Assembly: GCA_032622095.1 (NCBI GenBank)
Contig: CP136062.1
Location: 18,231,739-18,295,738 of the forward strand
Reading direction: 5' to 3'
Origin: Siphonodentalium dalli
Taxonomy: Eukaryota; Mollusca; Scaphopoda; Gadilida; Siphonodentaliidae
Length of the DNA: 64,000 bases
Numbering within the stretch: position 1 is the stretch's first letter; every line of letters starts with the position of its first letter. Made by a program: the position numbers and the translations under genes. Positions 3,687 to 51,236 of the stretch are shown piece after piece. The notes beneath the pieces are model-generated. The model was not told the origin of the DNA and did not search any database. It saw only the letters and a list, made by a program, of their open reading frames with translations.

Positions 3687-3689
3687 CGC

Positions 3690-22129: not shown

Positions 22130-23740
22130 TGTGATCACAGTGGTCCGTGACACAAGACTTTACATAGTTCTGTATACAGATGTACACCAATATCACATAA
22201 ATTACCATGTTCCACTCGCTTTATACACACATACCCCACCCATTACCATACAGCCACACTTTGGTATACCCATACACCCAACACATGGCAATATAGCCAT
22301 GAGTATAACCATGCAGGCACTCCAAGTATACTCCTACACCTCACCCATGACCATATGGTCAGACCTGTCTACCTATTTACTACATTCATGAACATACAGA
22401 AACCTCTTGTATGCCCATTTGCCCCACCATTAGTCATAAGTCACTCCATGTATATATATTTGCCACATGCATGGCCATAAAGCCACTCAAGATATACATA
22501 TACACCCCACACATGACCATATACTCACGCCTGGTATACCTGTTCGCAACATTCATGATCATACATCACTTCTTATATACATATTTGCCTCCACATGCAT
22601 GGCCATAAAGCCACTCAAGATATACATATACACCCCACACATGACCATATACTCACGCCTGGTATACCTGTTCGCAACATTCATGATCATACATCACTTC
22701 TTATATACATATTTGCCTCACCGGTGGTCATACAGTCACTCACTGTATATATATATTTGCGACACACATGTCCATATACCCACTCAAGATATACATATAT
22801 ACCCAACTCAAAACCATAGAGTCACTCTAGGTATATATAGTATAAATATAAACCTCACCTACATCCAATGTCACGCACCGCGAACGCGACCATTCATACC
22901 CTCCAGACTTGCATATGTGACCCGCCATATCAAATCCAGTCGTACGTCGGGATTTTGTTTACCCTGAGCCAATGCATTCTCTTATATATGCGAGTCGACC
23001 ATACGTCGCCTCGCATATATAAGAGAATTCATTGGCCTAACAATTTTTTATCATTTTTTTTAATAAATGTTTCTTACATTTTTAGGACATAAATAAAAAA
23101 CATCCATTACCCTGCAGGGAGCCCCATGCATATATAGAAGCATATAGAAGAGTGGCGTCTGCTCATGTTTGTCTGGGGCTCTGTATGGGTAAAATTATAA
23201 AATTGTTAAAAAATACAAGAAAAAATTATTAAAATTGTAAACATTTGTTAGGCCAATGCATTCTCTTATATATGCGAGGCGACTTATGGTCGACTCGCAT
23301 ATATAAGAGAATGCATTGGCACAGGGTAAAAAAAATCCCGACTTACGACTGGATTTGATATGGCGGGTCACATATACACCTCACCATGACAATGCAGCCT
23401 CTCGCTGTATACTCATAAACCACATTCGTTATCATACAGTCACTCCTTGTATACCAATTCACCTCACCATTAATTTTGCCATACTGGTACTCCCTATATA
23501 CATATTGGCCATACCATGGCCATATATCCACTCAAGATATACATATACACCTCGCCCATGACCATAGAGTCACTCTGGTGTGTATATATACCTCATCAAT
23601 GGACATTACATTCATTCTAGATATACCAATACCCCGCACACACGGCCATTCGTACACTCCAGACTTGCAAATACAGCTCAACATGACAATTCAGCCATTC
23701 GCTGTCTACTTATACAACCCATCCACTTGAACGTGGGGTC
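22130..23740 (-). repeat. Minisatellite related to the palindrome arms
   Basis: Units of the same GTATAC / CACCTCACCCATGACCATA family as 13585-14850, in the same orientation. A local ~133-bp tandem duplication occurs (about 22465-22597 versus 22593-22725). The array is interrupted by the TIR element at 22917-23371. Together with the arm-like block at 25405-26095 it appears to be the right half of an older foldback copy. Confidence 0.7.
22917..23371. mobile_element. TIR element carrying the double-hairpin cassette
   Basis: Termini GTGACCCGCCATATCAAATC and its complement, with ATAT on both outer sides (22913-22916, 23372-23375), a possible 4-bp duplication. ~50-bp TIRs end at a CCCTG/CAGGG boundary. 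Inside are two opposed hairpins (arm start GCCAATGCATTCTCTTATAT) like those of the TTAA MITEs, with an AT-rich spacer. It is inserted in the minisatellite. Confidence 0.8.
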
Positions 23741-23845
23741 TGACAAAACAATCCGTACGTTATATTGCCCAGTAGCCTAAATAACACTATTTTAGTAGAT
23801 GTGGGAGGGTGAATATATCTGTTTTGCAATACTATGGTTCTTTAA

Positions 23846-24175
23846 CCCTTTACCCAACAAACCGGCCAAAACCGGCCAAATAAAGCTTCAACAGCCTAAA
23901 ATATCTTCGGTCTGTCTCAATAGAAACATACAAATATGGATATCATTGGAACCGGCTAATTGACCACATTGTGATAGTTACAGTTATGCCCTGTGCCAAT
24001 GCATTCTCTTATATATGCGAGTCGACCATAGGTCGCCTCGCATATATAAGAGAATGCATTGGCCTAAAAAAATGTGTTAAGCCAATGCATTCTCTTATAT
24101 ATGCGAGGCGACCTATGGTCGACTCGCATATATAAGAGAATGCATTGGCACAGGGCCCTTCTGTTGGGTAAAGGG
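23846..24175 (+). mobile_element. TTAA-flanked double-hairpin MITE, copy 1
   Basis: Termini CCCTTTACCCAACA / TGTTGGGTAAAGGG bordered by TTAA on both sides (23842-23845, 24176-24179), as for piggyBac-type transposition. The left subterminal block has tandem CCGGCCAAAA motifs. Two 69-nt hairpins lie at 23995-24063 and 24081-24149, exact reverse complements in layout, with only a 17-nt spacer in this copy. Confidence 0.9.
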
Positions 24176-24179
24176 TTAA

Positions 24180-24892
24180 TTTGCCTTAGATTAGACCGAG
24201 GTTTCAAGTCCATATATAACATCATGGTCAATAAGTTATGAGGGATTAATTTATAATTAACTGGAGAAATATATAGCAAAATAAATATTATGATAACATA
24301 TAAACCTTATATTGTTAATATATAATGAATATGATATCAGTTGTCCTGAGATAAATAGATGCACTCCGCTCTTCAATAATGACCATATTTATGCAGATCG
24401 ATGCATATCATAAGTGTTCAACTGATAATGCTATCACTGATCTGAAGCCATATATAATCAAGACGTTTTCAATAACAGCATAGAACAGGGAAGAATACTC
24501 CGTCTAAATATCCACTCATTTGACCATCAAAATAGGGGTGGTCAAATACATGCATATGTACAAAATATTGTCTTCACACCCACAGGTCTTAACGAATGAT
24601 AAACTTAACCCGAAACTAGTAGACCCTTTTCGCAAGGGATTATCTGTTGCCGGTGTTCTCTGATCCTCCCCGCTTTGCTATCTTATTATAGAAAACATGC
24701 ATATTCCCTTCCACTTTCAATTGTATAAAACACAAGATAGAACAATCACATTCGCAGGTAACACATATCTTATGAGAACAATTGTTACTATCGCTCGAGA
24801 TCATCAAAGATGTTCCATTCAAGTGAGTCAGATCTTAGAATAAGAATGTTAGTTGCAAATTAGATAAGTCAAATGTTTGTCAAGCTACACGG
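24180..24892. other. Stretch without a recognised gene
   Basis: AT-rich sequence between two TTAA MITEs. No tandem, inverted or coding signal stands out. Confidence 0.5.
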
Positions 24893-24896
24893 TTAA

Positions 24897-25287
24897 CCCT
24901 TTACCCAACAGAAGGGTCCTGTGCCAATGCATTCTCTTATATATGCGAGTCGACCATAGGTCGCCTCGCATATATAAGAGAATGCATTGGCTTAACACAT
25001 TACAAATTATAAAATTGTTAAAGAATGTAAGAAAAAATGGTAAAAAGTGTTAAAAAAAGATTTTTTTAGGCCAATGCATTCTCTTATATATGCGAGGCGA
25101 CCTATGGTCGACTCGCATATATAAGAGAATGCATTGGCACAGGGCACAACTGTAACTATCACAATGTGGTCAAGGAGCCGGTTCCAATGATATCCATATT
25201 TGTATGGTTTTATTGAGACAGACCGAAGATATTTTAGGCTGTTGAAGCTTTATTTGGCCGGTTTTGGCCGGTTTGTTGGGTAAAGGG
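24897..25287 (-). mobile_element. TTAA-flanked double-hairpin MITE, copy 2
   Basis: Opposite orientation to copy 1. Left TTAA at 24893-24896; the right site reads ATAA (25288-25291), a one-base decay. Both 69-nt hairpins are present around an AT-rich spacer, followed by the GGCCGGTTTTGGCCGG subterminal block. Confidence 0.88.
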
Positions 25288-25404
25288 ATAAGGGGTGAGT
25301 CCGAAATTAGTCGCAGGAAGATACTAATAAGTGGTGGGTCCCTGGTTGGTCGCAATTTTTTTCAGCCCTGTGTACGGACTTTTTTTTTTGGCAGACCCCC
25401 CTGA

Positions 25405-26095
25405 CTGCATCCATTAAAATGAACTAATAATGCCTCATAAGGTACCAGGACAACTATAATAGAACATTCAGTTCATTAAGTAGCATGTTTAATAACCAAG
25501 TGAGTCACAATTTGCTACCTTTTCGGAACAGCAGAAAATAATGTTCAAAACATATGTGACAAATCAACATTTTACCAAATTTGTTTGCCATTTTGCAAGC
25601 CATCTTGAGTAATTTTGTCTAAACTACCTCAGTCTGACACATTTAACACATATCAAAACAACAGACACCCTTGATACCAAAGAGAGATCCATTTTACTTA
25701 AAAAAATGGTTCAAACCTTTTTTTTTTTTTTTTTTCCGATTTTGATGTAAAAAAATCAGAATAATTCTGATAATTTCAGTGGTTAAAATAACAAAAATTA
25801 ATCAAGGTGCATCAGAAATGTTAGTATTAAATGTATATAAGATAGAATAGTCAATTGTGTGTTCATGTTGCATGCCACTTTTGAGCCAAAGTGACAATTT
25901 TGGTACCATTGAGTTGGATATACATAACAAATAGAATGCATCACTTTAATTGCACAGTTCTTCCAATTTATTGATGAAATATGACTAGAATCCCAATGGT
26001 GATATTTTGTGATATGTTATACCGTGTCCTGAAAAATCGAATTTTTGAGTGATCGGAAATGGTCGGAACCACAGGAATGACATATTGCATTACCC
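25405..26095 (-). repeat. Diverged copy of a palindrome arm
   Basis: Aligns by eye, with many substitutions, to the reverse complement of about 12400-11900 and to 14890-15300: AAGCCATCTTGAG.AATTT, GACACATTTAA, CATTTTACTTAAAA, GGTGCATCAGA.ATGTTAGTAT. It retains the segment missing from the right arm of the 11-16 kb palindrome (GTGAGTCACAATTT.CTACCTT). Truncated on the right by the TTAA MITE at 26110. Confidence 0.75.
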
Positions 26096-26109
26096 CAAAG
26101 GTCAGTTAA

Positions 26110-26501
26110 CCCTTTACCCAACAAACCGGCCAAAACCGGCCAAATAAAGCTTCAACAGCCTAAAATATCTTCGGTCTGTCTCAATAGAACCATACAAATA
26201 TGGATATCATTGGAACCGGCTCCTTGACCACATTGTGATAGTTACAGTTAGCCCTGTGCCAATGCATTCTCTTATATATGCGAGTCGACCATAGGTCGCC
26301 TCGCATATATAAGAGAATGCATTGGCCTAAAAAAAAATCTTTTTTTAACACTTTTTACCATTTTTTCTTACATTCTTTAACAATTTTATAATTTTTAATG
26401 TGTTAAGCCAATGCATTCTCTTATATATGCGAGGCGACCTATGGTCGACTCGCATATATAAGAGAATGCATTGGCACAGGGCCATTATGTTGGGTAAAGG
26501 G
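26110..26501 (+). mobile_element. TTAA-flanked double-hairpin MITE, copy 3
   Basis: Complete copy with perfect TTAA at 26106-26109 and 26502-26505, termini CCCTTTACCCAACA, GGCCAAAACCGGCC subterminal block and both hairpins. Confidence 0.92.
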
Positions 26502-26505
26502 TTAA

Positions 26506-27446
26506 CATGCAAAATACAAAATAAAGTCACAATTCTCAACCAGTTCCAGACAGCAGAAACTTATCTTAAAGATATTAGTAAGGAACGTAAAAAATCTAAT
26601 TCCGGCCGCCATTTTTGCGGCCATCTTGGACGGGGAGTTCCAATTTTGGCACAAAAAGGTGGCGTTATGTCAGCTTCACAAACATGCATACTTGTGTATA
26701 CATATGACAAAATTATTTCACTATAATTGCATCCAACTGACTTAACGGAAATGGCAGCCATCTTGGACGCCATCTTGACTATTTTATTAATTAGCAACAT
26801 TGGCGATTGTTATTTCACAGGATGAATATATTAACATAGATACATACCATTGTGTGCATTAATAAATTAACAATTATTCCAATAATTTGTATTCTTGTGA
26901 ACTTTGTGAAGAACGTGCAGCGATTTCACAGTACTGTCTTTTTCCACTGGGAATTATATTGATACGGATACATATGTAGTTCACCCACGTACATGAACAT
27001 TTACTCCCAAAAAACAGTGACTGTCCGTAATTCATCCGAAATCAACTGCAATCTGTCTTCCGTCGACCCAATATTCTTTGCCGATCGAGCTAATTACGTA
27101 TGGCGTAATTTACGCCACCTTGACTTATTGGCCGCGTTTTCTACTTATTGGCCGACTTTTTGTTACCAGAATATTTTTACCAAAGTTGCGGGGGGGGCGT
27201 GTCACCGCATTCGTGAGTATATAGAACTCATTTCGTCAATGTTGCAATGTTTCTCCCGCCGCAGCATACATGTAAGTTGCGTGGATGTGTGTGCCCACTT
27301 ATACTACATGTATATTGTTCAACCCAATAGCAAAATATTCTGCAAAGATATAATTTGTATTAATGTATGCGTGAGAAAACGGAAATGACATTGACGAAAT
27401 TAGTTTCCCCACACAGAAGAATGTCAATTGCAACAATTTCGTGTTG
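26506..27446. other. Stretch without a recognised gene
   Basis: Contains CGGCCATCTTGGA-type motifs near 26600-26780 that echo the palindrome arms. A 131-codon open frame at 26993-27388 shows no recognisable domain and is not called as a gene. Confidence 0.45.
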
Positions 27447-27614
27447 TGGCTAAGACAGTCGCGCTTGCGCTATATAATTAAGCAATCAACAGACAACCTG
27501 ATAATTCGAGCGTCGGTACAACTCGCACCCACGTTGCAGTTGTCTGTTGTGCAATGCTCGAATGAGGGTTCGTTGATTTCTTGGTTAGACAACACAAGCG
27601 CAGTGTCTTAGCCA
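27447..27614. mobile_element. Small TIR element (MITE)
   Basis: 168 bp with imperfect ~25-bp termini TGGCTAAGACAGTCGCGCTT / complement of CGCAGTGTCTTAGCCA. The inner parts are also partly inverted (AACAGACAACC, AATTCGAGC / GCTCGAAT). No clear target duplication. Confidence 0.6.
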
Positions 27615-27854
27615 TTAAGTGCCACCAAAAGAAAAAAAGAACAATGTCTTGTGTTATACGCCAGTTTTCAATAACATGAAGAAATCATAAATACTTTCCT
27701 GAATGAACGTGCATTTATCACAAAGTGCCCAGAGGCACACAGTTTAGCGCCATAAAAGCATTGATAATTATGTCAGTAAATTGTAAGCCGACGGAATTGT
27801 CGTGGGATTTAGAAATCCGAGTCGTGGACTAAACCGATAAATTAATGAATGACC

Positions 27855-27992
27855 GAAGGTCTCAACTCAACCTGCAGCACTTTGCCAAAATGCGATCAAA
27901 CCTTACTTATCACCAAAACGACACGTCAACTCAACCCGCAGCTCTTTGCCAAGGTGCGATCAAACCTTAATTATCACCAAAACAACACGTCA
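27855..27992. repeat. Two-copy ~66-bp tandem duplication
   Basis: TTTGCCAA..TGCGATCAAACC and ATCACCAAAAC.ACACGTCA occur twice in a row with few differences. Confidence 0.7.
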
Positions 27993-28129
27993 GCATGGGA
28001 TATATATCTTCATTTCCATACTTTCCATATTTTCAGGTACGACCAATCAAAGACATACGTTGTTTCTTACTGGAGGCGGAACACATATCTGTATATAACA
28101 ATGGCGGATACTTTCTACAGACGTTAAAG

Positions 28130-28485
28130 ATCAATCTCTACCAGAGCGCACAAGTCATGATTCCTTTCTGACTCTGTTCGAGTTGTGACAATGACGTACA
28201 CGTGCGTTTATACGTTTGTGTTGATAACATGATCGGAGAACCGAATCACACTGTTTCGAAATATAGTTCTTCGGTTTTAGTGGGACTTTTCAAACATAAG
28301 GTCCAAAATTTATACAAAATCTGTTCGATATGTTGTGTGCTTAACAATGGCAGCATGTTGCTCTGTTCGCTTAGTATATATTTTAATATCGATTAAGTCC
28401 ACCAAGTGTGGGTGAAATGTCGCCGGTAGCTGCGGTCTTAACGAGTCGTCAAGGCAGGTAAACCCTGCATGGAGTTTGGTTAAAG
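28130..28485. repeat. Dispersed repeat, uninterrupted copy (empty site)
   Basis: Shares long stretches with 29203-29619 (its left part) and 32230-32370 (its right part). The join of the two parts, GTGTGCTTAACAATGGCAGC near 28340, contains the TTAA that is occupied by the composite element at 29620-32229. Confidence 0.8.
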
Positions 28486-29202
28486 GTATGCCTGCAATAT
28501 AATTGCATTTGAACGGCTGTTGAACCCCGAGACTATGACTGAATTATCAGTGTTGTTTAATTTCACGCCAGATTTACTACTATTACGCTGGAAGGAACAT
28601 TATATAGTATCACTGGTATTACAGTAAATATAACGATTTCATGGAAGCTTTAACTTAATTGTGCCCTTATGGCAATTATCAGATAGTGGTATAATTAAGG
28701 TCTTATTTACATATAAAGGCCTCGTTATGGCTGCTGGCCTTTTGCCAACAGCCTTAATGATATAAGCATAGTACAATGTTATATACATGGTCAGTCTTAG
28801 ATTTGTCCGTCAGTTTGTTACTTGGTGCTTTGTGTGTTATTCGATGCTTGTATATCTCTCTATGATACTACTTGTATATTAAATATAATCAAAACGTTTA
28901 CTCAAGAAAACTCGTGTTTCTCTCCAACGTGAACTGTAGCCACAACGTGAAGTGAAGGATAGTGCCACAATGCAGTAGGAGGACGTCAACATACACTAGG
29001 TAACGTTATCGTAGCATTGACATCCAAATGTTAAAGTTTCCTCCTGCGTTGAAACCATGATCAGCCGGGTATTCATCACGTGACCAACCCTTCCTTACTT
29101 AATGATCTTCGGTCTCATATGTTGATGTCCATTGATCTCTTCTGAAACAGATATACTCATATTGTCAATGGATCTCCTGACAGATTAAAATGTGCATATA
29201 TA
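28486..29202. other. Stretch without a recognised gene
   Basis: AT-rich, no domain-bearing ORF or repeat found. It includes a small inverted motif GGCTGCTGGCC...GGCCTTTTGCCAACAGCC near 28730. Confidence 0.45.
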
Positions 29203-29619
29203 GCAATCTCTACCAGGGCGCACCAGTCATGCTTCCTTTCTGACTCTGTAACCGATTGGGTACTAGTCTGTGTTTTTGTATTTAGCATGGGATTTTCCAC
29301 CAAAAATGGCGAAAACCGATCGCTCCAATGTCAAATTTTCTATATGCTTTGTGAACAATTCCCACACTAAAACATAATGACAGTATGGAAAATCAGAGCG
29401 GAAGTTTTGTTGACGATTTTCGCAAGCTACCCGTCAAAATTGCAACAAATTAGAACTCTCTTGACAATGTCGTACAGGTGCATTTATACTATTGTTTTGA
29501 TAACATAATCGGAGAACCAAATCACACCGTTTCGAAATATAGTTCTTCCGTTTTAGTGGGACTTTTCAAACATAAGGTCCAACATTTATACAAATATTTT
29601 TCGATATTTTGAGTGCTTA

Positions 29620-30268
29620 GGTAGCAGTACACGATTTCACGGGTTGTAGGGGGTCTGAAAAATAGAAATATAAGTATCTGGGGGGCATAACGCCCAGTGT
29701 AGCCTGTGTTAACTGTGTCATTACTGGTTTGAAGGTTTATTTATTTTACAAAACTGGGAAAGTTCTCAAAAAAGTGAAAAATTTGGATACGCAACAGGGT
29801 TTTCGTATTCAGTGAAGGCCAACTCTGTGTTATTGATTACAGGGAAATAGCCCGATTTCTCTCCCCTGAATTCTGTCATCTGGGCTCGCAAGACTTTTTT
29901 TTTCAAATTGATACGATAACTTGTTTTCTATTTCAAATATTTCTCAGCTCTAGCATAGCTCTATCAGGTGGAAGAATCTTATTTACTGACATTCGCTCTA
30001 TCATGGTCTGTTTTTGGGTTGAAAATGGCCAATTTGAGTAAAAAAATGGGTAAAATTGAGCGGTTCGTGTGTTCTAACCAAGGGGCATAACTCAATGACA
30101 AACTGTACGAAGAACCAAAAGTACATTTAAATGATTACACCTAAAATTTCTGCCGAAATTAAAACATGCTTGATGGGATATATGCCAACGATAATGGCTT
30201 AGCATTGATTTGAAGTACAGTACCCCCTCCCAGGTTGGCAAAATTGCTGGAAATCGTGTATTGCTACC
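29620..30268. mobile_element. 649-bp TTAA-type element, copy A
   Basis: Termini GGTAGCAGTACACGATTTC and complement of GAAATCGTGTATTGCTACC. The right side is followed by TTAA (30269-30272); the left flank is TTA. Near-identical in sequence and exactly equal in length to 31581-32229. No ORF with a domain, so non-autonomous. Confidence 0.85.
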
Positions 30269-30272
30269 TTAA

Positions 30273-31576
30273 AGAGACATATCAAATTGGATAAATTAGT
30301 GAAAATCTACTGAAACATTTTATCTTTCCTATCTTCGTGTCTGAGTTACTATTCACAGTTTCTATTTATGACTGTTCTCGGAATTAGGTGCATTTGCTTG
30401 TAGAGTATTTGTATCTGAGGCTGTAAACTTTGATAGTATGGATTCCAGCTTGACAAGTCACTGAATGATCACACCGACAGGGCAAAAAACAAATTCAACG
30501 TATGTCTGCTATCGATAAAAAAAAACATTCCGGTTCACATTTGGGGGGGGGGGTGGTTATGTGATTATATATGCATCAGTTACTCTGTACGATTCGTTTC
30601 GAGTGGTGCGGTTTTGTGTAATTACATAAAATTGACATTAATTTAATGAAACGTGTTGCCACGCAAACATTTCAACAATGGATTTCCTTGGATACCTGGT
30701 GCGAAAAGCCATATTAATGTTGGTTATTTAGTTTTGGTCGTGTTTCCGAATGACCGAGTAATGTCAATATGTATATTGGAGAGGGGGTAAAGTCAGCTAC
30801 TGAGTTATCACGAACAGCGCGTGAGCACCAGCACAATAAAAATGGTATATAAGATTCCATAAATAATTAAATAGTGTGATTTCAACTTGACAATTAAGTC
30901 ATTGAATGTACACCGACTGGCCAAATAAACATGGTTCACATTTTGGAGGAGGGGTGATTATATATGCATTAGTTATTCCCTACGATTTGTTTGGAGTTTT
31001 GTTGCGTTCTTACATGTTTATGGCTGACCACATAAAAGTGATTTGCATGTAACGAAATGTGTTGCTAAGGGAACATCCCAACAATGGAACTCCTCGGATA
31101 CCACCTACGAATATGCGTATTGATTGATATTGGTCATTCGGTCTTGGTCGTGTTTCCTAATAACCAAATACATTGTCTCTTAACATATTCGGGGGGGGGG
31201 GGGGGTGACAAGAACATTGTCTTAACATATGCGGGGGAGGATGGGGGGGCTGGCTAGTAAATAACCACAGTGCATATGCTCTGGTCAGCAGAATACAGAT
31301 GTAATATGTCTGTTCAGACTGCCTTTTTGACTGGGATGTTTAGTTTTAAGGTGGTGGGCATGATGTCACATTTATAATTTAACTTTTTTTTTTTCGCTAT
31401 AACCAATAATTTGGGTGAATTTGGTTCATTTGTATTGAAACCACACTACTTATATTGACCTTATTTCCCATTCGCACTGAAGAAACACCATATGTGTTAT
31501 ATATCAAAGTTATCGGTGTACGTCAGAGACTTAACTTTACATTTGCGCGTTGAAGGGGGATAACTCTATTTTTCCT
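30273..31576. repeat. Interior of the composite unit, with an internal duplication
   Basis: 1.3 kb of non-coding DNA between copies A and B. Positions 30449-30755 and 30881-31165 are diverged direct copies of each other (CTTGACAA, CCGGTTCACATTT or TGGTTCACATTTTGG, GGTCGTGTTTCC). G-homopolymer tracts occur at 30543, 31190 and 31235. Confidence 0.65.
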
Positions 31577-31580
31577 TTAA

Positions 31581-32229
31581 GGTAGCAGTACACGATTTCA
31601 CGGGTTGTAGGGGGTCTGAAAAATAGAAATATAAGTATCTGGGGGGCATAACGACCAGTGTAGCCTGTGTTAACTGTGTCATTACTGGTTTGAAGGTTTA
31701 TTTATTTTACAAAACTGGGAAAGTTCTCAAAAAAGTGAAATATTTGGATACGTAACAGGGTTTTCGTATTCAGTGAAGGCCAACTCTGTGTTATTGATTA
31801 CAGGAAAATAGCCCGATTTCTCTCCCCTGAATTCTGTCATCTGGGCTCGCAAGACTTTTTTTTCAAATTGATACGATAACTTGTTTTCTATTTCAAATAT
31901 TTCTCAGCTCTAGCATAGCTCTATCAGGTGGAAGAATCTTATTTACTGACATTCGCTCTATCATGGTCTGTTTTTGGGTTGAAAATGGCCAATTTGAGTA
32001 AAAAAAATGGGTAAAATTGAGCAGTTCGTGTGTGCTAACCAAGGGGCATAACTCAATGACAAACTGTACGAAGAACCAAAAGTACATTTAAATGATTACA
32101 CCTAAAATTTCTGTCGAAATTAAAACATGCTTGATGGGATATATGCCAACGATAATGGCTTAGCATTGATTTGAAGTACAGTACCCCCTCCCAGGTTGGC
32201 AAAATTGCTGGAAATCGTGTATTGCTACC
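31581..32229. mobile_element. 649-bp TTAA-type element, copy B
   Basis: Same termini and length as copy A, with perfect TTAA on both sides (31577-31580, 32230-32233). The right flank continues as the right half of the host repeat seen at 28340-28470. Confidence 0.88.
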
Positions 32230-32625
32230 TTAACAATGGCAGCATGTTGCTTAGTATATATTTTAATATCGCGGAAGTCCACCAAATGTGGGTGAAATGT
32301 CGCCGGTCGCAGCGGTCTTACCGAGTCACCAAGGGAGGTAAACCCTGCATGGAGTTTGCATATATAGTTGCGATCCGCTTGTCAACATTTAGTCATTTGC
32401 AGCCCCCAGTAACATTCGAAGATAGAAAGTGTGTCTTTTGCTGTGACGATGTCGTAGAAGCCGAACAAGAGGCAAACTAATAATTCGCTTCTTCCGTGCT
32501 CGTGATGAGCAAACAACAGTTAGGTAACCATTAATATGATACATGATCCCGAGCCTCCGTGTGCATCTTAGAATATTACGTAATTGTGTTTTGTATATTT
32601 TATTATCACATGTTTTGTATATATA

Positions 32626-32974: not shown

Positions 32975-32979
32975 TAATA

Positions 32980-33950: not shown

Positions 33951-33953
33951 ATA

Positions 33954-34066
33954 AATGGAAGCAAGTAGGGGTCAGCGTGCGAGATCATGTGACGTAATAT
34001 CGACCAACCAACGTCCTGCATTCATGTTCCACATCGCGAATGCATGTGGGAGTGTAAATATACAAA
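33954..34066. repeat. ~113-bp dispersed repeat, single copy
   Basis: AATGGAAGCAAGTAGGGGTC through GTGTAAATATACA. Matches the tandem pair at 38284-38510. Confidence 0.75.
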
Positions 34067-34469
34067 CAAGAAATTCAATTAATTGAGGAAAAACACCCAC
34101 TGTCCCGAGTGGTAATGATAATCTATTGGAGGGTCTACTAGTTCGCATGCAAAATAGCATAATAGCATTGGATGTCTCAATGACATCAACAGCTTTAAGA
34201 TGGGAATAACCTACCATATATGGTAGATATTCAACCAGGCTCTGCTTAAGTTTGTTAATTGATGACTGGTGTACATGTACAATACACACAAATATTAATA
34301 ACAATTAACGTTATGATTTTGAAACTATGATAGAATATTGACAGTAAGGTGGTATTAACTACTACGAGTACTATTAGTAACAATAGTACTACTTTTCTAG
34401 CATAATATATGTGTACATAATGCATGGGAAATATTAAAGGACGAAACAATAGTTACAATACAATTATAA

Positions 34470-34935
34470 CAATTAAGCGCAATAAGAGCTAATTGCACTT
34501 AAGCGCAATATGGGAATCTCTATTGTGCTTAAGCGCAATATGGAAGTATTGAACTGTGTATAAGTGAATGATGGAATTTTCATATTGCACTTAGATAATA
34601 AAACTCAATAAGGTAACTCTTAATAAGGAATATAGTATATAGTGTACATAAACTGCCTATAATTCAGGTGGTGTAGTCCATTCCCATGGTACAATGGGTG
34701 GAACAAATATAGGATTATTCTACTATTTGCACAAGGGCGATCTAATGAGATGGATATTAATTGCGCTTAAGTGCAATATGGATGTAATTTCGCTTATGTG
34801 TAATAGGGAATGTGTAATAAGAATATTCCTTATTGCACAGGAATATCATATTGTGCTTAAGCGCAAAAAGGTATCTCTAACTTTGCTTAAGCACAACAAC
34901 TTAAGGAATTTTCTTATTGGCCTTGAGTGCAATTA
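34470..34935. repeat. Cluster of near-palindromic TTAAGCGCAAT motifs
   Basis: About ten variants of ATTGNRCTTAAGYGCAAT in both orientations, for example near 34472, 34495, 34524, 34762, 34853 and 34884. Several read as an almost perfect dyad around CTTAAG, with spacings of about 30 to 180 bp. Confidence 0.65.
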
Positions 34936-35383
34936 GTTATTCGGTTAGTTAAATAATAAGTTATTTCAATTGTTTTTTCATAACCGTGCAGCCCTTATTA
35001 GAGATCCCTTAAGTTATTGCAGTTAATCGAAATTCTCTATTAAATGTCAATGTGGTTTCCCATAAAGATCATCAATGATGTCTATGCGCAAGCGCATGGG
35101 CGACACGCCAATCTTCTCTGTTGGGATTCCAATTGTTGGCTTATTAAATATGCACATATGCTTAAGATACAGTTGCGCGCAAAGCGCGCTCCCGTAAGTC
35201 GGGTTTTTGGATCCCAGTTAATGAAAATATCATTGAAATAATCGGTTTCCCCCCAATAAACATCCATATATTCAATATACATGTTTTGGAGCAGAATTAG
35301 GCAGTCCATATTGGACGCCATCATGGAATTTATTTTTTTTGGTTTAATTTTCACACATAAGTATTAGTTATGTGGATGGAGTT

Positions 35384-35897
35384 CTCATTAAACCTCACAT
35401 CCTTATATTGGTTACAGTAATTCCCAAAGTAATTGACCACTTAACCACATCAGAATTATTGGTAATTTTTCAGGATTTTAAATCCTGAAAAATTACCAAT
35501 AATTATGCTGTGGTTAAGTGGTCAATTAATTTGGGCATTACTGTACGAGGATTGAGTTATCATTAAACCTCAAATCCTTATATTGGTTACATTAATGCCC
35601 AAAGTAATTGACCACTTAACCACAGCAGAATTATGGGTATTTTTTTCAGCATTTAAAATCCTGACAAATTACCCATTATTCTGCTGTGGTTAAGTGGTCA
35701 ATTACTTTGTACATTACTATATGAGGATTGAGTTATCATTACACCTCAAATCCTTATATTGGTTACAGTATAATGCCCAAAGTAATTGACCACTTAACTA
35801 CAGCATAATTATGAGTGATTTTCAGGATTTAAGATCATGAAAAAATACCCATTATTTTGCTGTGGTTAAGTGATCAATTACTTTGGACATTACTGTA
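35384..35897. repeat. Three tandem copies of a TA-flanked hairpin MITE
   Basis: Copies at 35415-35543, 35590-35719 and 35766-35895, each with termini CAGTAATGCCCAAAGTAATT (or a close variant) and its complement, bordered by TA. CAGT ends plus TA are typical of Tc1/mariner MITEs. The ~45-bp flank (ATTGAGTTATCATTA, then CCTTATATTGG) is repeated with them, giving a 175-176 bp period, so the array grew by duplication rather than three insertions. Confidence 0.85.
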
Positions 35898-36174
35898 TGT
35901 AGATGAGTTAAACCTCACATCAGTGTGTTGGGGATTTGGACCTTGACTTGGGATCTTTTGTTTTTAACGCAACAAATGCGCATACACCTTATACACAAAT
36001 TTCTTATGTAACCAGAGTTTTTCTTGGATAAGATGAGTTTGAAGCCTGCTTACATTTCAAAATGTTGTCTGTTTTGTATTATCTGCAGCGGAACTCGACG
36101 TGTTGAAGCAAAAGTTACAAAAGATAAAATGTGTACGTAACGAGACTATAATACAACTGAAAAAATAAATTGAG

Positions 36175-36850
36175 GGAGGGGTGGGCGATACAGGGAACTA
36201 AGGGTTGAACCGAAATAAATTTGTAGAGCGATAACGACCAACGTTGACATATTATGCATCTCAACTCTACTGTTGCAACAAGGCTATAAAATAGGGGGGT
36301 GTCAGAATCTTAGTCATCTCTATATAGTGCCAGAATAGTCATTTATGGACTTCTATAAGATGTTGGGTTGGTTATAATATGGACTCGGAGAAAAAGGCCT
36401 TTGTACCGATGAACTGACATAAATTAGTGGAGCGATGTTGCCATGTAATGCATCGCGACTGTACTAAAGCAGCAATGATATAAAATTGGAGGGGTGGGTC
36501 TGAAATTATCTCTATTTCTATAGATGGCACCAGGATTATATAGAAAGGAATAGCAATTGATATATGTATACGGTATACTATAGTAATACCATAGACATAT
36601 AAGTATCACGCGATAAAATATTACGTAACGTGACTATACCGATGAAAGAAATAAATAAATTGGACCAGGATTAGAGGTTGGGTTGGTTATATGTGGATAA
36701 TTGGATATGGAATTCATACCGATGAAACGATACAAATTAGTGGAGCGATAAAGACCAATGTTGACACTTAGTCAGGCTATGCGGGAGAAAATAGGGGTTG
36801 ATACGATAGACCGAAATAATGACCAATGTTGACGTATATAAAGTAACGCG
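36175..36850. repeat. Diverged tandem repeat, ~200-270 bp units
   Basis: Recurring GAAATAAATT.GT.GAGCGATAA.GACCAA.GTTGAC and ATAGGGGTG blocks, about three or four degenerate units. Non-coding. Confidence 0.5.
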
Positions 36851-36861
36851 ACTGTACTGGA

Positions 36862-37170
36862 CTGTTATTTTTCAAAATTTTAAGCCGAGACTTGGTGTGT
36901 GTGAGTGGGATACTAATATATTACTAAAATGACAGAGTACAGCACGTAATTATGTTTTAGATGGAAGAAATGAATTTTTTTCAATGATAAAATTTAACAT
37001 GGCATTTGCCATTAAAATCGATTTATGTCGATAAAACTGTCATTTTTCAACATTTTAAGCTGAGACTTGGTGTATGTGCGTGTGATACTTATATATTCAT
37101 AAAATAACAGAGTCCAGCGCGTAATTATGTTTTAGATGGAAGAAATTGAATTTGTTTTCGATAATAAATT
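36862..37170. repeat. Two-copy direct repeat, ~150 bp
   Basis: 36862-37010 and 37037-37165 share TTTAAGC.GAGACTTGGTGT, CGTAATTATGTTTTAGATGG and ATTGAATTTGTTTT-type blocks. Confidence 0.7.
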
Positions 37171-38280
37171 TGCAGCGTGGACGGGTCATCGAGTGCGCTC
37201 AATTTGTAAACAAAGTTTTGTCAATAGTCGTTTTGGTCAAACTATCCATTTTTAGACCGGGACAGCAGATCCGAATAGTAGCTAAGATGTATTTAGATAG
37301 AATTATCAAAAGAATTTGACTGATTAGAGTGCATTGTAAGAGATTCGAGTGGAGAAATATTGGTGACATTTTCACAAAAACACGCCAATTCGGCAATGAC
37401 TGCTACTTGCAGACGAGCGCTCGTTAATATTCATGCCAAGAATGCAGGCGTCAAACTCATCTTTTTGGAAGGTTAATCCAACATTTTTATTATCAGAACA
37501 ATCCTCCCAAAACACCTTCCAAATATCCAAGAAAGTTTTAATAACTTAGAAGACTGAACAGCCGAAATGAATTAATTAATAATCGCCAATGGAGGCTTCG
37601 CAGTGACGGTTGGCAATTATCACGATACGACAGGGGAACAATTTGACGTTCGTACTCATATTTCACCAATTTTTGTACCTGACTTTCCTATCCTAAGTTT
37701 CAAGGGAAAATGGCTAATTTTACTCTATTTGTCGTTATATACATATTATACATATTTATCACACCATTTATTATTCATTTTCATAAAAATAAAATAAAAG
37801 AAGCCGAAGATGACATGTTTAAACTGTTTGAAGCACGAATTTGGCGATAAGTTGTTATCAGAGTACGTTATACTTGTGATAGTTACGTTACGCACACGGT
37901 GTTCCCATATCCTATTGCGATAATCGCTTAACCCTTCGGGTTTCAACGGCATTTCAATTTGATGAAATTAAAATTTCTCAAGTTCCAGCTCAACACGAAT
38001 CTAGTGACCCAATTGGTAGAAATACTTTAGCAGTAATTCTTAGTTTTATAAGTCATAACTCTAATTTTATTGACGATACGAGCTCAACATCTAATATGTC
38101 ACTGTTTATGGCGGTGTTATCCAAACGTGTGCTTTGATAATGATTATAATTTTATTTTACGATCAAACGTCAGTGCAGCTCAGCAGAAACGCATAGGCAC
38201 TAGTTCAATTCAGCAGAAACGCATAAGTCCTACGATTATAGACACCCACTGGACGCGCTTCGCGCGTCGGTCAGTGGGTG
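37171..38280. other. Stretch without a recognised gene
   Basis: AT-rich with short random frames. A small tandem CAGCAGAAACGCATA duplication occurs near 38178-38226. No domain-bearing ORF. Confidence 0.45.
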
Positions 38281-38283
38281 AAA

Positions 38284-38510
38284 AATGGAAGCAAGTATGT
38301 GGTCAGCGTGTGACGTCATGTGACGTGATATCGACCAACCAACGTCTTGTATTCATGTTCCACACCGCGAATGCAGTTGAGCGTGTAAATATACAAAAAT
38401 GGAAGCAAGTAGGGGTCAGCGTGCGGTGTCATGTGACGTAATATCGACCAACCAACGTCCTGTATTCATGTTCCACAGCGCGAATGCATACAGGTGGGGG
38501 TGTAAATATA
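38284..38510. repeat. Tandem pair of the ~113-bp dispersed repeat
   Basis: Two copies of the 33954-34066 repeat (GGAAGCAAGTA, GTCAGCGTG, TATCGACCAACCAACGTC, TTCATGTTCCACA). Confidence 0.75.
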
Positions 38511-39110
38511 ATTTGTTCTGGAGATTGTTTCTCTGTCTCGCCGACGTAAAGCGTTCGTGGATACACAGTTCACACAACTCACACAGTATATACTTAATTT
38601 ATGGTTTTACAGTTACTATTACTATAAACTGCGCGTAATGTGCATGCCGTATTTTATACTTTATTCACGCCTGGCAATCTCCCCCCTCACAACATTTGGC
38701 TATGCAAAGATTACCGATTTCTCTCCATATCGATACTCCCGTTAAAAAGTTATTTAGTGGTCACTTCGTATATTTCTTTATTAGGAATACTCCAATTCGA
38801 CGTAAAACTGATTGCTGGATTTAGATATGTGCATAACAGCTGCATGTAAATGGCAACAAATCGATGTATTCGTGCACGCGTGAGTGAAGTAATAATGAAA
38901 TATATCGATATCTTGCGCAACAAATCATATATTGAGTCAATTAAATCGATTATGTTGAAACCAGAGTGCTAGCTGAATAGACATTCAGTGTGACATGTCT
39001 GAATGGTGCTTCTGAGCATAATGGACACAGTTATCATCGATTTCCGAGCGCTGTTGTTGGCTGCGTTCAAGAGGACCTGGATGAGAATCTATGATCTTGT
39101 CTGTGGTACG
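38511..39110. other. Stretch without a recognised gene
   Basis: No supported coding region, TIR pair or tandem array. Confidence 0.4.
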
Positions 39111-39345
39111 CATCAATCGAGGGGAGTTTATATGCATGTTGTGTTATTGAATTATTCATCCAATGAGAAGAGTTTTAATAGATGTCTTATGTGTTATTCA
39201 TCCAATGAGGAGAGTTTTAATAGATGTCTTATGTGTTATTTATCCAATGTGGGGAGTTTTTTAATAGATGTCTTCTGTGTTATTCGTCCAATGAGGGGAG
39301 TTTTAATAATGTCATCTGTAGTATGCATCCCAAGAGGTGAGTAGT
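39111..39345. repeat. ~58-bp tandem repeat, four units
   Basis: Units of GTGTTATTCATCCAATGAGG, then AGAGTTTTAATAGATGTCTT, decaying toward the right end. Confidence 0.75.
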
Positions 39346-39699
39346 AATATACGTTCAAAAACTAGGAGCACAGCGATGTGTGGATGATGGTGTCATTTGA
39401 TTTTCAGAATCAGTTTCGTGTGAAACTAGACACTGCCCTCCTTGATTGCGTGTATCGTAGCCCACGCAAAACAGCAGTAAATTGACAACGAATGAAAATC
39501 AGCTTTTTTGAAAACCTATAACTATAGTTTGAAGAAAAAGAACATACCGGTACTCGTTTCTGGAATTTTTAACTATTTCTTGAGAAACCGAAACTGCCTC
39601 AGATATAGAGGCCCCATCTTTTCTGGACTGTCTTCACCAGGATTATCTACACTAGATCGCAAACGAACGTAGCAGGCAAAGACCAGGAAACACGGCTAT

Positions 39700-41312
39700 A
39701 ATGGTTAGATCTTCTCATAACAAACAGCCAGGTTCCTGGATATTTCCATGAATCTCTATTCTGTCTAACGCCCGTAGAGATCATATTCCACCAGTACAAA
39801 ACCTTGTTGTAAAATATAGAGATCCGGGGGGGGCTGAGAACACCACAGAATACAAGGGTAAACCTGTCTTCGGTAACATGGACAGAGGTGATCATTATCT
39901 AGGTACACATTCCGAAGCGCCACTTGGACAATTCCATAGTCAGTAAAATTAAAAACAGGAGCATAATAGAGGTATGCCTGGTGTTTTGAAATTTGGAAAA
40001 TATAGGTATACCTATGACAGAGTATGCGTACCAGTATCGTAGAATCTCGCACTATCATAAATGAACTAGTTATACGTAGAGTATTAAAATATTCTTTAGT
40101 TTCATGATTGTCCCATACCGGTAGTTTCAGTAAAAGATGGGAGCGTGGTACATAGTTAGGTGTTACAATTTTAGAAATTAGGAACGTAAGCATATAGGCC
40201 GCGAGTTTTCGAAAGGGTTAATTTTGAAATTTATAGTTATTTACATGAGTAAGCAGTTGTAGAATGTAAGTGTAGGTGTAAGTCTGAAGTAAAATGCTAA
40301 ATTTCACTGGAATCGTCGTCAGTTATGTACCTGGTGATGGAGTGTTTAAACAACAGACCATCGCTTTTCGACCCGGATCTCTATATTTTACAACAACACA
40401 TGAATCTCTATTCTGTCTAACGCCCGTAGAGATCATATTCCACCAGTACAAAACCTTGGAACTTTTTGAAGTTTTGACAGGGAACCTTATAAAGTCAAAA
40501 CTATAACGCGGGGAATATATTTCTCTGTTATTATCTGTAGGTGAAGGTCCCAACTAAAAATTCCATGCTGTTCTGTGACTTTTGTGAGCTGATATCGCAA
40601 TAGACGTTGAATTAATTACCCAGGAGAAATACCATAATTGTAAGGGACGCAAAGAAAAATCGCTCGCAAATTCACTTGAATCGTGATATTTTTAGTTGGG
40701 ACATTCACATTATTAACCCTTTACACAACAAAGCGGCCAAAAACGCCCAAATAAAGCTTCAACAGCCTAAAATATCTTCAATAACACCATACAAATATGG
40801 ATATCATTGGAACCGGTTCATTGACCACATTGTGAAGGTTACAGTTATGCCCTGTGCCATTGCATTCTCTTATATATGCGAGTCGACCATAGGTCGCCTC
40901 GCATATATAAGAGAATGCATTGGCCTAAAAAAGATCTTTTTTTAACACTTTTTACCATTTTTTCTTACATTCTTTAACAATTTTATAATTTTTTCTTACA
41001 TTTAAAAAACAAATTCTAATATTTTTCAACATTCTTTGACAATTTTATCATTTTTAATATGTGTTAAGCCAATGCATTCTCTTATATATGCGAGGCGACC
41101 TATGGTCGACTCGCATACATAAGAGAATGCATTGGCACAGGGCCGTTCTGTTGGGTAAAGGGTTAAGGAACAGATAGTACCTGAGAAATATATTCTCCGC
41201 GATATTTTTTCGACTTTATAAGGTTCCCTGTCAAAACAAATAGTTCCAAGGTTTTGTACTGGTGGAATATGATCTCTAGGGGCGTTAGCCAGAGTAGAGA
41301 TTCATGGCATGA
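39700..41312. repeat. Rearranged block of direct and inverted duplications
   Basis: The ~58-bp segment beginning ATGAATCTCTATTCTGTCTA occurs at 39749-39806 and 40400-40457, and inverted at about 41255-41312. The segment around ACAGGGAACCTTATAAAGTC (40478-40530) is inverted at about 41185-41240. 39803-39826 is inverted at 40373-40397. The pair 40400-40546 / 41168-41312 forms ~145-bp inverted arms around the TTAA MITE at 40717. A 142-codon minus frame at 39765-40193 has no recognisable family. Confidence 0.7.
40717..41162 (+). mobile_element. TTAA-flanked double-hairpin MITE, copy 4 (longest)
   Basis: TTAA at 40713-40716 and 41163-41166. Left terminus CCCTTTACACAACA (one change), right TGTTGGGTAAAGGG. 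Both hairpins are present, the second with one changed base in its arm (GCATACATAAG). The spacer is enlarged by repeated TTCTTACATTCTTTAACAAT motifs. Confidence 0.9.
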
Positions 41313-42030
41313 TCTACCAGGTTCCATACGTTACGTAGAACACAAAGAACCACCATTCGGCAAACCTCGTCGGATTCCGTCACCGTTTCAGACTCGGCTT
41401 TAATACAACGCCATGATCGGTTCGAACTATATCACGTTATTTTTAGCTCGGTGACTGGGTCAAGTACAGGCGCGCCAATTTGAATTTAGTTATATTCCGT
41501 CAGTTCGTGGGTACGAAAACATTTACATTTAACGTCGAATTAAGCAATATAAAAGTGTTGTTTTACAACACTGATATAGAATAGTCCATAAAATATCTAT
41601 ATGAAATTATAGCAATACCTAAATTGACCTTTGTAGACACGTCCAACAGCACAATTGTTGCGAGGTGACACAATCGGTACAGTACTAGGTAGTTGGTGGA
41701 CTCAACTATTCAAACAGAGCTAAACGCTCTCATTATAAACGTCAGGTTTACCGACTAGATACCAGGCGGATACTCAGTTGTCGAGTCATAACATTATCAA
41801 TGGCATTAAAATAGGATGATTGGCCCATGTTTCTGGATATTTGGTGATCAAAGAACACGAGCCATACATAATAATTGTATCGAATAACTCGTCAAATAAC
41901 ACTACACGTATTTTATGCGGAAGGTCGGCTATAGAGTGGTGACACATTTCTTCCAGATCTGGGAATAATCATCCGCGAAAAATGAGTTCTAATTGGCCCC
42001 AAAGGTCATAAGTCGAGGAGTCCAGAATGA
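41313..42030. other. Stretch without a recognised gene
   Basis: No supported coding region or repeat. Confidence 0.45.
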
Positions 42031-42039
42031 AAGAACCAC

Positions 42040-42318
42040 TTGGTCAAAGTGGCCACGAAATTATACATCCACAAATGTTTGCGTCCAGCGTCGATGATAC
42101 CGTCATGAATTACATGTGGCACAAGGGGAACTATAGGACTGCATTGGGGAATTATCTGAAAACATCTACATTTGACACGTTTGCTAGAAGATGAATTCGA
42201 AGTTGCGTGGGATTATTTCAACAACACGATGGAGAACTTAATTGAAAACATGCTCAGAAGGGAAGATTAAATTTAAAGAAAAACAGAAGAATCTATGGGT
42301 AAAACAAGACGTCATGGT
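42040..42318 (+). repeat. Direct duplication, copy 1, with coding-like remnants
   Basis: Nearly the same as 44163-44434. Forward frames look like eroded coding sequence: HPQMFASSVDDTVMNYMWHKG runs to a TGA near 42195, then a shifted frame continues EFEVAWDYFNNTMENLIENMLRRE to a stop. Both copies share the frame break, so it predates the duplication. I do not recognise the protein. Confidence 0.65.
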
Positions 42319-42322
42319 TTAA

Positions 42323-43443
42323 AGGCCCACTTAATTTTCGAATCACCAGATCACATTATATACAACATATTCCATGTTATATACCATGAATCACCATATC
42401 ACATTATATACAACATATTCCATGTTATATACCATGAATCACCAGATCACATTATATACAACATATTCCATGTTATATACCATTTGAAAGAGGAAGCTCC
42501 AAAACATTGTATTATTAACTAATCCGGTCGAATAAACTGGGAACATGTTGTTTTTTTGTCGAGGTACCAATGTGTGTACTGCATTTAACTTTGATCCGAA
42601 CTGTACTATAAAGTATATTATACTCAATGGAAGGGGAATAACTCTATATATTAGTTTGAATTTTGATGCATTCTTGGTTAACAAGGGGGAGTCTTGGAAT
42701 GAATCTCTATCACTTGGTGGACAGTCCTAAGCCACAGCTGCTTCGTATTCTGGTGGAATATATATATTTTTGGTTCCTCTTCCAAATGGTATATAATATG
42801 GAATAATATAATCCGGGCATTCGAAAATTAAGTGGGCCTTTAACCCCTCCATGACTGGAGCTTCCTGAAAGTTTGTGAAAACCCTGTGCCAATGCATTCT
42901 CTTATATATGCGAGTCGACCATAGGTCTAACAATTTTTTATATATTTTTTTTATCAATTTTTCTTACATTCTTTAATAATTTGTATCATTTTTTATAATT
43001 TGTTCTTACATTCTTTCACAATTTTTATAATTTTTTTTATAATATTATCTGGTGTTGTATATAATATGGAATATGTTGTATATAATGTTATCTGGGCATT
43101 GAAAATTAAGTGGGCCTGTAAATAAGGCCCCTAGCTAATTAAAGTCATGTGAAAATGGGAACTTCCTGATTTTTTACGACTTTTTACGAAAACCCTGTGC
43201 CAATGCATTCTCTTATATACGCGAGTCAACCATAGGTCGCCTCTCATATATAAGAGAATGCATTGGCCAAACGAATTTTATATTATTTGTTATAATTGTT
43301 AAAAAAAATGTAAGAAAAATGAAAACATATATAAAAAATTGTTAAAGAATGTAAGAAATAATGATAAAAATTGATAAAGAACGTAAGAAAAAATGATAAA
43401 ATTGGAATAATATAATCCGGGCATTCGAAAAGTAAGTGGGCAT
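42323..43443. mobile_element. 1.1-kb TTAA-flanked element with hairpin cassettes
   Basis: TTAA on both sides (42319-42322, 43444-43447). Left terminus AGGCCCACTTAATTTTCGAA; right, complemented, ATGCCCACTTACTTTTCGAA. Inside are three ~54-bp tandem units (42334-42485), inverted terminus-like segments (about 42787-42842, 43070-43116), and the hairpin module: half at about 42887-42929 and one full hairpin at 43197-43266. The paralogous sequence at 44430-44470 lacks the insertion. Confidence 0.75.
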
Positions 43444-51216: not shown

Positions 51217-51236
51217 AGTACGGAAGCCATGACAAC

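What the first reader, a model, noticed from the sequence alone, without database searches (positions are those of the whole stretch)
22917..43443. Same hairpin cassette inside elements with three unrelated termini
The CCCTGTGCCAATGCATTCTC hairpin module occurs in the CCCTTTACCCAACA family, in the GTGACCCGCCATATC element (22917-23371) and in the AGGCCCACTTAATTTTCG element (42323-43443). Its borders (CCCTGTGCC / GGCACAGGG) coincide with the point where the host elements diverge, implying a module that is itself mobile or repeatedly captured.
Basis: seen in the sequence. Interest (0 to 1): 0.75.

Follow-up and report, generated by a model that had tools for sequence, protein, structure and literature searches.

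The report
Hairpin core shared by unrelated mini-transposons
The same 74-base DNA hairpin, repeated tens of thousands of times in this genome, sits just inside the ends of several otherwise unrelated families of small non-coding transposons; it seems to travel with them rather than alone, and it has stayed unchanged while its surroundings diverged, which suggests that it helps them multiply.

Summary
The cassette is real. The window lies in a 2.23-Gb genome with 152,016 exact matches to the 20-mer. In the loci fetched it sits subterminally in four families of miniature transposons: F1 (TTAACCCTTTACCCAACA), F2/F4 (TTAACCCTTTCATGAC), F3 (TTAACCCTTTSAGTGCC), all TTAA/piggyBac-type, and F5 (GTGACCCGCC, 4-bp ATWT duplication). 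Consensus cassettes of F1 (both ends), F3 and F5 are 74/74 identical, while the 20 bases outside match at 2-10 of 20. The adjoining AT-rich spacer is homologous but differs at 8-19% of aligned sites. The third case (AGGCCC, 42323-43443) is a composite: an F2-type arm plus hairpin captured between AGGCCC ends, repeated at other loci.

Independent mobility is not supported: 66 of 70 junctions in the C1 sample, and 69 of 87 from classes chosen to be odd, carry known arms. One bare copy (L125) is ambiguous. Best reading: a hairpin core spread by its host MITEs, exchanged or captured between families, and held constant in amplifying lineages, probably by a cis-role in mobilisation (inferred). Closest precedent: coral CMITEs (PMC2872659). 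New variant of a known kind.

The parts
22917..23371 (+). F5 MITE, GTGACCCGCCATATC... termini, hairpin at both ends; 4-bp duplication ATAT at 22913-22916 / 23372-23375
22962..23035 (+). left 74-bp cassette (7-bp CCCTGAG + 67-bp hairpin) of the F5 element
   Evidence: fold -29.7 kcal/mol, z -11.4
23253..23326 (-). right 74-bp cassette of the F5 element
23846..24175 (+). F1 MITE (TTAA-flanked) with two hairpins and a shortened spacer
24897..25287 (-). F1 MITE (one flanking TTAA reads ATAA)
26110..26501 (+). F1 MITE, full length 392 bp: long arm 26110-26251, hairpin cassette 26252-26325, spacer, cassette 26408-26481, short arm 26482-26501
   Evidence: hairpin fold -36.1 kcal/mol, z -14.3
40717..41162 (+). 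F1 MITE, long-spacer form (446 bp)
45450..45841 (-). F1 MITE
62335..62709 (+). F1 MITE; right hairpin partly collapsed
42323..42839 (+). AGGCCC element (TTAA-flanked, 5'-AG...CT-3' ends, Kolobok-like signature)
   Evidence: signature rule from PMC9587614 passages
42843..43120 (+). captured unit: F2-type terminus and arm, half hairpin (from 42882), AT-rich spacer, second AGGCCC right end (43100-43117)
43193..43266 (+). second single hairpin cassette with a diverged F2-like arm; followed by a third AGGCCC right end (43426-43443)

Best explanation
The feature is the subterminal core of several families of miniature inverted-repeat transposons. It is a 74-bp cassette (CCCTGTG plus a 67-bp near-perfect hairpin with a conserved internal T.C mismatch) joined to an AT-rich spacer. 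SHOWN, for the loci examined: the cassette is inside MITEs with unrelated arms and two types of 4-bp target duplication; it nearly always faces CCCTGTG-outward; its consensus is identical between F1, F3 and F5 while arms and spacer differ; copies without known arms are rare; one capture into another element can be read. INFERRED: (1) copies multiply when the host MITE is mobilised in trans (piggyBac-type for F1-F4, unknown for F5). (2) The core passed between families by rare capture or exchange (nested TTAA insertion, break repair or template switching at the hairpin), not by its own transposition. (3) The hairpin stays constant in source copies because it acts in cis in mobilisation or amplification, for example as a protein-binding palindrome next to the end.
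For: Consensus cassettes of F1L (27), F1R (29), F3 (14), F5 (25) are 74/74 identical in all pairs; the outer -1..-20 bases match 2-10 of 20. Spacers are homologous (above all 500 shuffles for F1-F5, F1-F3 and F5-F3, one representative each), but their consensuses differ at 7 of 53, 9 of 48 and 4 of 50 aligned sites, against 0 of 74 in the cassette (Fisher p 0.0017, 0.0001, 0.0245, uncorrected). In 34 F1 copies sampled through the arm, not the hairpin, common (>=20%) variants number 9 in 137 arm positions and 0 in 148 hairpin positions (p 0.0012; 6 of 134, p 0.011, if three sites in an indel-prone repeat are left out), while private decay does not differ significantly (arm 1.8%, hairpins 1.4% and 0.6%; bootstrap 95% -0.25 to 2.1 points). 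That points to constraint on source copies rather than correction of dead ones. The older F2-type hairpin differs by two compensated pairs (G:C>T:A in 11 and A:T>C:G in 12 of 59 distinct 67-nt hairpins), and the T.C mismatch is kept in 56 of 59. Orientation: cassette starts facing the nearer end versus away are F1 120:3 (61 elements), F5 26:0 (13), F3 16:0 (19), F2/F4 27:4 (14). F1 arms chosen without regard to the hairpin are followed by the cassette start in 39 of 40. F1 has TTAA on both sides in 26 of 29 copies (58 rows there because both strands were counted) and 28 of 34. F5 has a 4-bp ATAT/ATTT duplication in 7 of 8 distinct copies. Capture in the AGGCCC composite.
Against: The cis-role is inferred from conservation only, and the tests are post hoc and uncorrected. 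A recent common source for F1, F3 and F5 would also give identical hairpins, although the spacer divergence argues against that being the whole story. Most copies used were found through the exact 20-mer, so the first 20 bases of those hairpins are biased towards identity, and some rows are near-duplicates from tandem or inverted duplications. The spacer consensuses used only copies in which a spacer motif was found (F1 54 of 62, F3 10 of 12, F5 19 of 36). F3 has a hairpin at one end only, and hairpin-less palindromic F3-like MITEs exist, so the hairpin is not needed in every family. Single-sided stem changes outnumber compensated ones outside the loop stem. No autonomous partner with these arms was found: none of the 20 piggyBac transposase loci fetched carries the hairpin (its one loose match, in L047 at up to 7 mismatches, is not it), but those 4.2-4.4-kb pieces may not reach both ends. 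F5 belongs to no superfamily that I could name.
Confidence: 0.6

Rival explanations
1. The cassette is itself a mobile element (a tiny foldback/TTAA element with its own ends CCCTGTG...CACAGGG) that inserted into several MITEs.
For: One outer border, the same to the base in the F1L, F1R, F3 and F5 consensuses. L125 holds a bare two-hairpin cassette with TTGA on the left and TTAA on the right. F5-type cores without F5 arms exist: L022/L036 and L121.
Against: Only 1,496 + 470 of 152,016 copies have a -1 pyrimidine or CA. Among 35 + 19 + 33 junctions fetched from odd classes, 69 have known arms (this includes partner junctions of the same elements), and of the 18 others several are truncated F5 (L064, L068, L114, L118, L121, L122), one an F4 arm just under threshold (L111) and one an arm deletion (L110). 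TTAA|CCCTGTG can arise by deletion between CCCT repeats, as L110 suggests. Orientation is almost one-way. F3 with the hairpin is not F3 without it plus an insert: the interior is replaced.
Confidence: 0.1
2. One ancestral hairpin MITE whose termini diverged beyond recognition while the hairpin was kept (vertical descent only, no capture).
For: F2, F3, F4 and F5 have the hairpin about 38-45 bp from the tip; F1-F4 all start TTAACCCTTT; the spacer is homologous in F1, F3, F5 and the composite. CMITEs show a comparable pattern (PMC2872659, passages).
Against: Spacer consensuses differ by only 8-19% while outer arms match at 2-10 of 20, so arms would have to evolve far faster than an AT-rich spacer. 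F5 has a non-TTAA duplication and a G start. The F1 arms are 20 and 143 bp, not about 40. The F3 arm exists with a quite different core.
Confidence: 0.2
3. The identity is concerted evolution: hairpins are copied between MITEs by cruciform-linked breakage, template switching or gene conversion, with no function of their own.
For: Hairpins collapse and lose parts (vestiges in 8 of 8 F1 'empty' matches; L003, L009, L027). Tandem hairpin amplification inside an F2/F4 element in L008. Exchange would keep all families alike.
Against: Dead F1 copies keep private hairpin changes at a rate not significantly below the arm, so ongoing correction is not visible. Perfect-palindrome correction should also remove the T.C mismatch, which is kept in 56 of 59. 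F2/F4 hairpins differ from the rest and are 8-9% from their own consensus.
Confidence: 0.15

Closest known systems
CMITE families of Acropora corals (Wang et al. 2010, PMC2872659; abstract, passages and sections 12-13 seen)
   Same: TTAA-flanked, piggyBac-like MITEs of several families with different TIRs but one conserved internal region of 75 bp; tandem arrays; a composite (CMITE-IN) in which the MITE sits between direct repeats and moves with TTAA ends.
   Different: The printed 60-bp CMITE core is not a convincing match to this cassette (score 13 in one of four comparisons, 5 of 300 shuffles as high; the others ordinary) and does not fold unusually (z -0.65). Here the core is a hairpin (z -14), with 152,016 exact 20-mers, and occurs also in a family with an ATWT duplication.
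piggyBac/TTAA MITEs and piggyBac/piggyBat ends (PMC11707139, passages only)
   Same: TTAA duplication, CCC termini; subterminal palindromes beside the tip are bound by the transposase's cysteine-rich domains in piggyBac and piggyBat.
   Different: Those palindromes are short (for piggyBac, 19-bp repeats). Here a 67-bp hairpin is shared across families and also with the non-TTAA F5.
Kolobok-type elements / KolobokP (PMC9587614, abstract and passages)
   Same: The AGGCCC element has TTAA and 5'-RR...YY-3' ends, the Kolobok signature; composite architecture with repeated ends.
   Different: No transposase was searched for; the repeated ends here are about 50 bp and not 450/660-bp LTDRs.
SINE families sharing a conserved central domain (recalled; the one paper search for it found nothing)
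   Same: A core shared by elements with different heads and tails.
   Different: RNA-mediated elements; here DNA transposons with TIRs and 4-bp duplications.

Membership tests
piggyBac-type (TTAA) MITE: F1, F2/F4, F3 | TTAA target duplication | tested here: met
   F1: 26 of 29 and 28 of 34 with TTAA on both sides; F3 and F2/F4 termini read TTAACCC in many copies, not counted
piggyBac-type (TTAA) MITE: F1, F2/F4, F3 | CC(C/T)T terminal motif (PMC2872659 passage) | tested here: met
   TTAA|CCCTTT in F1-F4
piggyBac-type (TTAA) MITE: F1, F2/F4, F3 | small, non-coding | tested here: met
   F1 225-489 bp; F3 228-482 bp in the 9 of 12 rows with a right end. No coding search was run on F1; in L014 (two F3 copies) ORFs up to 115 aa only
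piggyBac-type (TTAA) MITE: F1, F2/F4, F3 | autonomous partner with the same termini | tested here: inconclusive
   128 PF13843 matches; of 20 loci fetched, six show TTAACCCTTTA on one side (L045, L046, L050, L052, L053, L054) and L056 shows TTAACCCTTAA on both, but none has the F1-F4 arms
F5 as piggyBac-type | TTAA duplication and CC terminus | tested here: not met
   4-bp ATAT/ATTT in 7 of 8 distinct copies, GTGACCC terminus
CMITE | core more conserved between families than the TIRs | tested here: met
   74/74 versus 2-10 of 20
CMITE | homologous core sequence | tested here: not met
   one weak score (5 of 300 shuffles as high, four comparisons made)
CMITE | all families TTAA-flanked | tested here: not met
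   F5
independently mobile cassette | bare copies with a common target duplication | tested here: not met
   single ambiguous locus L125
Kolobok-type (AGGCCC element) | TTAA plus 5'-RR...YY-3' ends | tested here: met
   42319-42324 and 42838-42843; rule from PMC9587614
Kolobok-type (AGGCCC element) | Kolobok transposase partner | not tested
known structured RNA | Rfam family match | tested here: not met
   0 matches at gathering thresholds, window 22000-47000

The most novel reading that the evidence does not exclude
The 74-bp hairpin is a portable cis-acting amplification signal: any small transposon that acquires it next to its end multiplies strongly, whichever transposase serves it. The genome would then have been colonised by a selfish DNA structure that rides on several transposon superfamilies (piggyBac-type, the ATWT family F5, and a Kolobok-like composite). 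L125 and the arm-less F5 cores (L022/L036, L121) could be traces of rare self-movement.
Probability: 0.25. Interest if true: 0.75.

Novelty: new variant of a known kind. Interest (0 to 1): 0.5.

Why it matters
How MITEs reach very high copy numbers, and why some internal sequences help, is an open question; the CMITE authors called the origin of their conserved core a mystery (PMC2872659, passages). Here the same problem comes with far larger numbers, a defined 74-bp structure, both hairpin-bearing and hairpin-less relatives of one family (F3) and families using different target sites. The cis-role of a MITE core therefore becomes directly testable.

Tried and rejected
Independent insertion with target duplication was rejected on junction counts and fetched loci. 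Empty-site patterns: F1 8 of 8 matches are collapsed vestiges; F5 3 loci, one a clear vestige; F3 99 strand rows, mostly a different palindromic core. The idea that L064 was a new TTAAAGGTACG family was dropped: its right end is a truncated F5 arm. F2 and F4 first looked like two families but are the two ends of one element. Exact matches elsewhere: viral contigs 0 (26-mer), genome contigs 0 (22-mer); Rfam 0; exact search only, so distant relatives there are not excluded. The first arm-versus-hairpin comparison was biased by choosing copies through the hairpin and was replaced. The first spacer comparison used one typed representative per family, and I entered F1-F3 as 9 of 54 where the alignment shows 10; one search repeats it on consensuses and is the one quoted. 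The F1-arm DNA search returned nothing (the tool skips very common words). The classifier failed by a coding slip (all 'none'); its listing is used, and the counts come. L091 was fetched at a wrong address and holds no cassette, so 14 of 15 CA-class loci count. Paper searches for shared cores or unrelated TIRs in DNA transposons gave CMITE as the only close precedent in the listings I saw; one search looked for SINE cores and found none, and searched for CMITE by name.
Full report
OBSERVATION. The 20-mer CCCTGTGCCAATGCATTCTC has 16 matches in the window at up to 3 mismatches (mean 0.00 in 100 shuffles) and 152,016 exact matches in the 2.23-Gb, nine-contig genome (76,190 + 75,826; backwards control 0). 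The cassette is CCCTGTG plus a 67-bp hairpin, CCAATGCATTCTCTTATATATGCGAG-TCGACCATAGGTCGC-CTCGC..., which folds as single-stranded DNA at -36 kcal/mol (z -14.3) with one internal T.C mismatch.

ANATOMY OF THE HOSTS. I fetched 40 regions chosen from the 100 listed C1 places, not all 100. Outer junctions fall into six arms: F1L/F1R are the two ends of one TTAA element, F2/F4 the two ends of another, F3 has one hairpin (228-482 bp where a right end was found, 9 of 12 rows), F5 has two. In one search, 66 of 70 distinct junctions of this sample have a known arm; the other four are one F5-core locus and its copy in a large inverted duplication (L022/L036), and other loci of that duplication and of tandem arrays are also counted more than once in the 70. 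Ten exact duplicates were dropped. The genome search scored 40 of 3,752 candidates; 13 rows, the window's own included, cover the whole 278-bp unit. In all six loci cut out (L104, which is the window, and L105-L109 at 85-88% identity) the unit lies between two AGGCCC ends of the same direction.

IS THE CASSETTE MOBILE BY ITSELF? Before the 20-mer stands G in 88,925 copies (F1-type), a pyrimidine in 1,496 and CA in 470. Odd classes were sampled on purpose, and all cassette junctions in the fetched pieces were classified, partner junctions included. Pyrimidine class (20 loci): 32 of 35 have known arms (3 too near an edge and 1 duplicate dropped). CA class (14 loci with a cassette): 16 of 19. TTAA class (343 genome-wide; 18 loci): 21 of 33 (2 and 1 dropped). 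The 18 others include truncated F5 (L064, L068, L114, L118, L121, L122), an F4 arm just under threshold (L111), and L110, where the short F1 arm seems lost between two CCCT repeats. L115, L123 and L125 have TTAA directly at the cassette; L125 is two-sided (TTGA / TTAA) in a tandem array of about 499 bp. L086 and L096 stay unexplained. This is no independent family, but one bare copy remains ambiguous.

ORIENTATION. Cassette starts face the nearer element end in 120 of 123 (F1), 26 of 26 (F5), 16 of 16 (F3) and 27 of 31 (F2/F4) cases.

WITH AND WITHOUT. F1 arms picked without regard to the hairpin are followed by the cassette start in 39 of 40. F3-type arms also occur with another small palindromic core; the shared arm ends about one base before the cassette border (L099, L100, L103). 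Thus the outer border is a real exchange point.

IDENTITY VERSUS SURROUNDINGS. Consensus cassettes of F1L, F1R, F3 and F5 are 74/74 identical in every pair; outer bases -1..-20 match 2-10 of 20 and -21..-40 match 3-5 of 20. The spacer is homologous (above all 500 shuffles for F1-F5, F1-F3 and F5-F3), but its consensuses differ at 7 of 53, 9 of 48 and 4 of 50 sites (Fisher p 0.0017, 0.0001, 0.0245 against 0 of 74, uncorrected; copies without the spacer motif left out: 54 of 62, 10 of 12 and 19 of 36 used for F1, F3 and F5). Among 34 F1 copies chosen by the arm, common variants are 9 in 137 arm bases and 0 in 148 hairpin bases (p 0.0012); three of the nine lie in an indel-prone repeat, and without them it is 6 of 134 (p 0.011). 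The allele combinations form a mosaic. Private differences are 1.8% in the arm and 1.4% / 0.6% in the hairpins, not significantly different. Six of the 40 copies lacked a findable end and were left out of that count. F2/F4 hairpins are older (8-9% from their consensus) and differ by two compensated pairs, with the T.C mismatch kept (56 of 59 distinct 67-nt hairpins). Results against: single-sided stem changes are more common than compensated ones outside the loop stem; F5 (8 copies) shows no clear arm-hairpin difference at its right end (1.7% versus 1.6%); and F3 does without a second hairpin.

MECHANISM. Best supported: a core carried by MITEs that are moved in trans, handed between families by capture or exchange, and kept constant only in copies that go on to amplify. 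piggyBac transposases are abundant (128 matches) and several of the 20 fetched loci have TTAACCCTT termini, so F1-F4 mobilisation in trans is plausible. No partner with the same arms was found, and F5's is unknown. In piggyBac and piggyBat, subterminal palindromes are bound by the transposase's cysteine-rich domains (PMC11707139, passages), one possible role for the hairpin; F5 would then need the same or a host protein.

KNOWN KIND. CMITEs of corals (PMC2872659; abstract, passages, two sections) are TTAA MITEs with different TIRs and a conserved 75-bp core, tandem arrays and a composite. The principle is the same; the core is not demonstrably homologous, is not a hairpin in the printed consensus and, in the passages I saw, is not reported outside TTAA elements. 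Hence: new variant of a known kind.

Noticed in passing
L099, L100, L103 (C1:146.86 Mb, C4:80.32 Mb, C2:133.14 Mb); L101, L102: Tiny hairpin-less palindromic MITEs (about 110 bp) with F3-like arms TTAACCCTTTCAGTGCCAAGTCC... and core TTCCTTGATCATTTTTCAAGGAA or shorter; L101 and L102 are almost pure palindromes with no core.
   Followed up: partly
G000:C1, about 1.70-2.09 Mb and 3.34-3.67 Mb: Several loci have near-identical partners in inverted order (L025/L034, L026/L033, L028/L031, L022/L036): a large inverted duplication or an assembly duplicate.
   Followed up: no
G000:C1:735-780 kb (about 14.56-kb steps), 820-921 kb (about 11.17-kb steps), 94.237-94.292 Mb (about 7.86-kb steps): Evenly spaced cassette copies point to long tandem arrays of multi-kilobase units that contain these MITEs.
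   Followed up: no
L008:998-1355: Inside an F2/F4 element the hairpin itself is tandemly amplified with a 97-bp unit (hairpin plus about 30 bp).
   Followed up: partly
window 1053-8363 (-): A run of ORFs with GIY-YIG, phage-integrase (tyrosine recombinase), reverse transcriptase and Dam-methylase domains, which looks like a DIRS/Ngaro-type retroelement (the type name is recalled).
   Followed up: no
window 51150-52787 (+): A 545-aa ORF matching DUF229 (E 2e-117), possibly a host gene or a processed copy.
   Followed up: no
L032:420-894: An F5 element next to the end motif of an AGGCCC element (flank AGGCCCATTT); AGGCCC ends and TTAA elements were seen abutting and sharing TTTAA (window 42839, L021).
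   Followed up: partly
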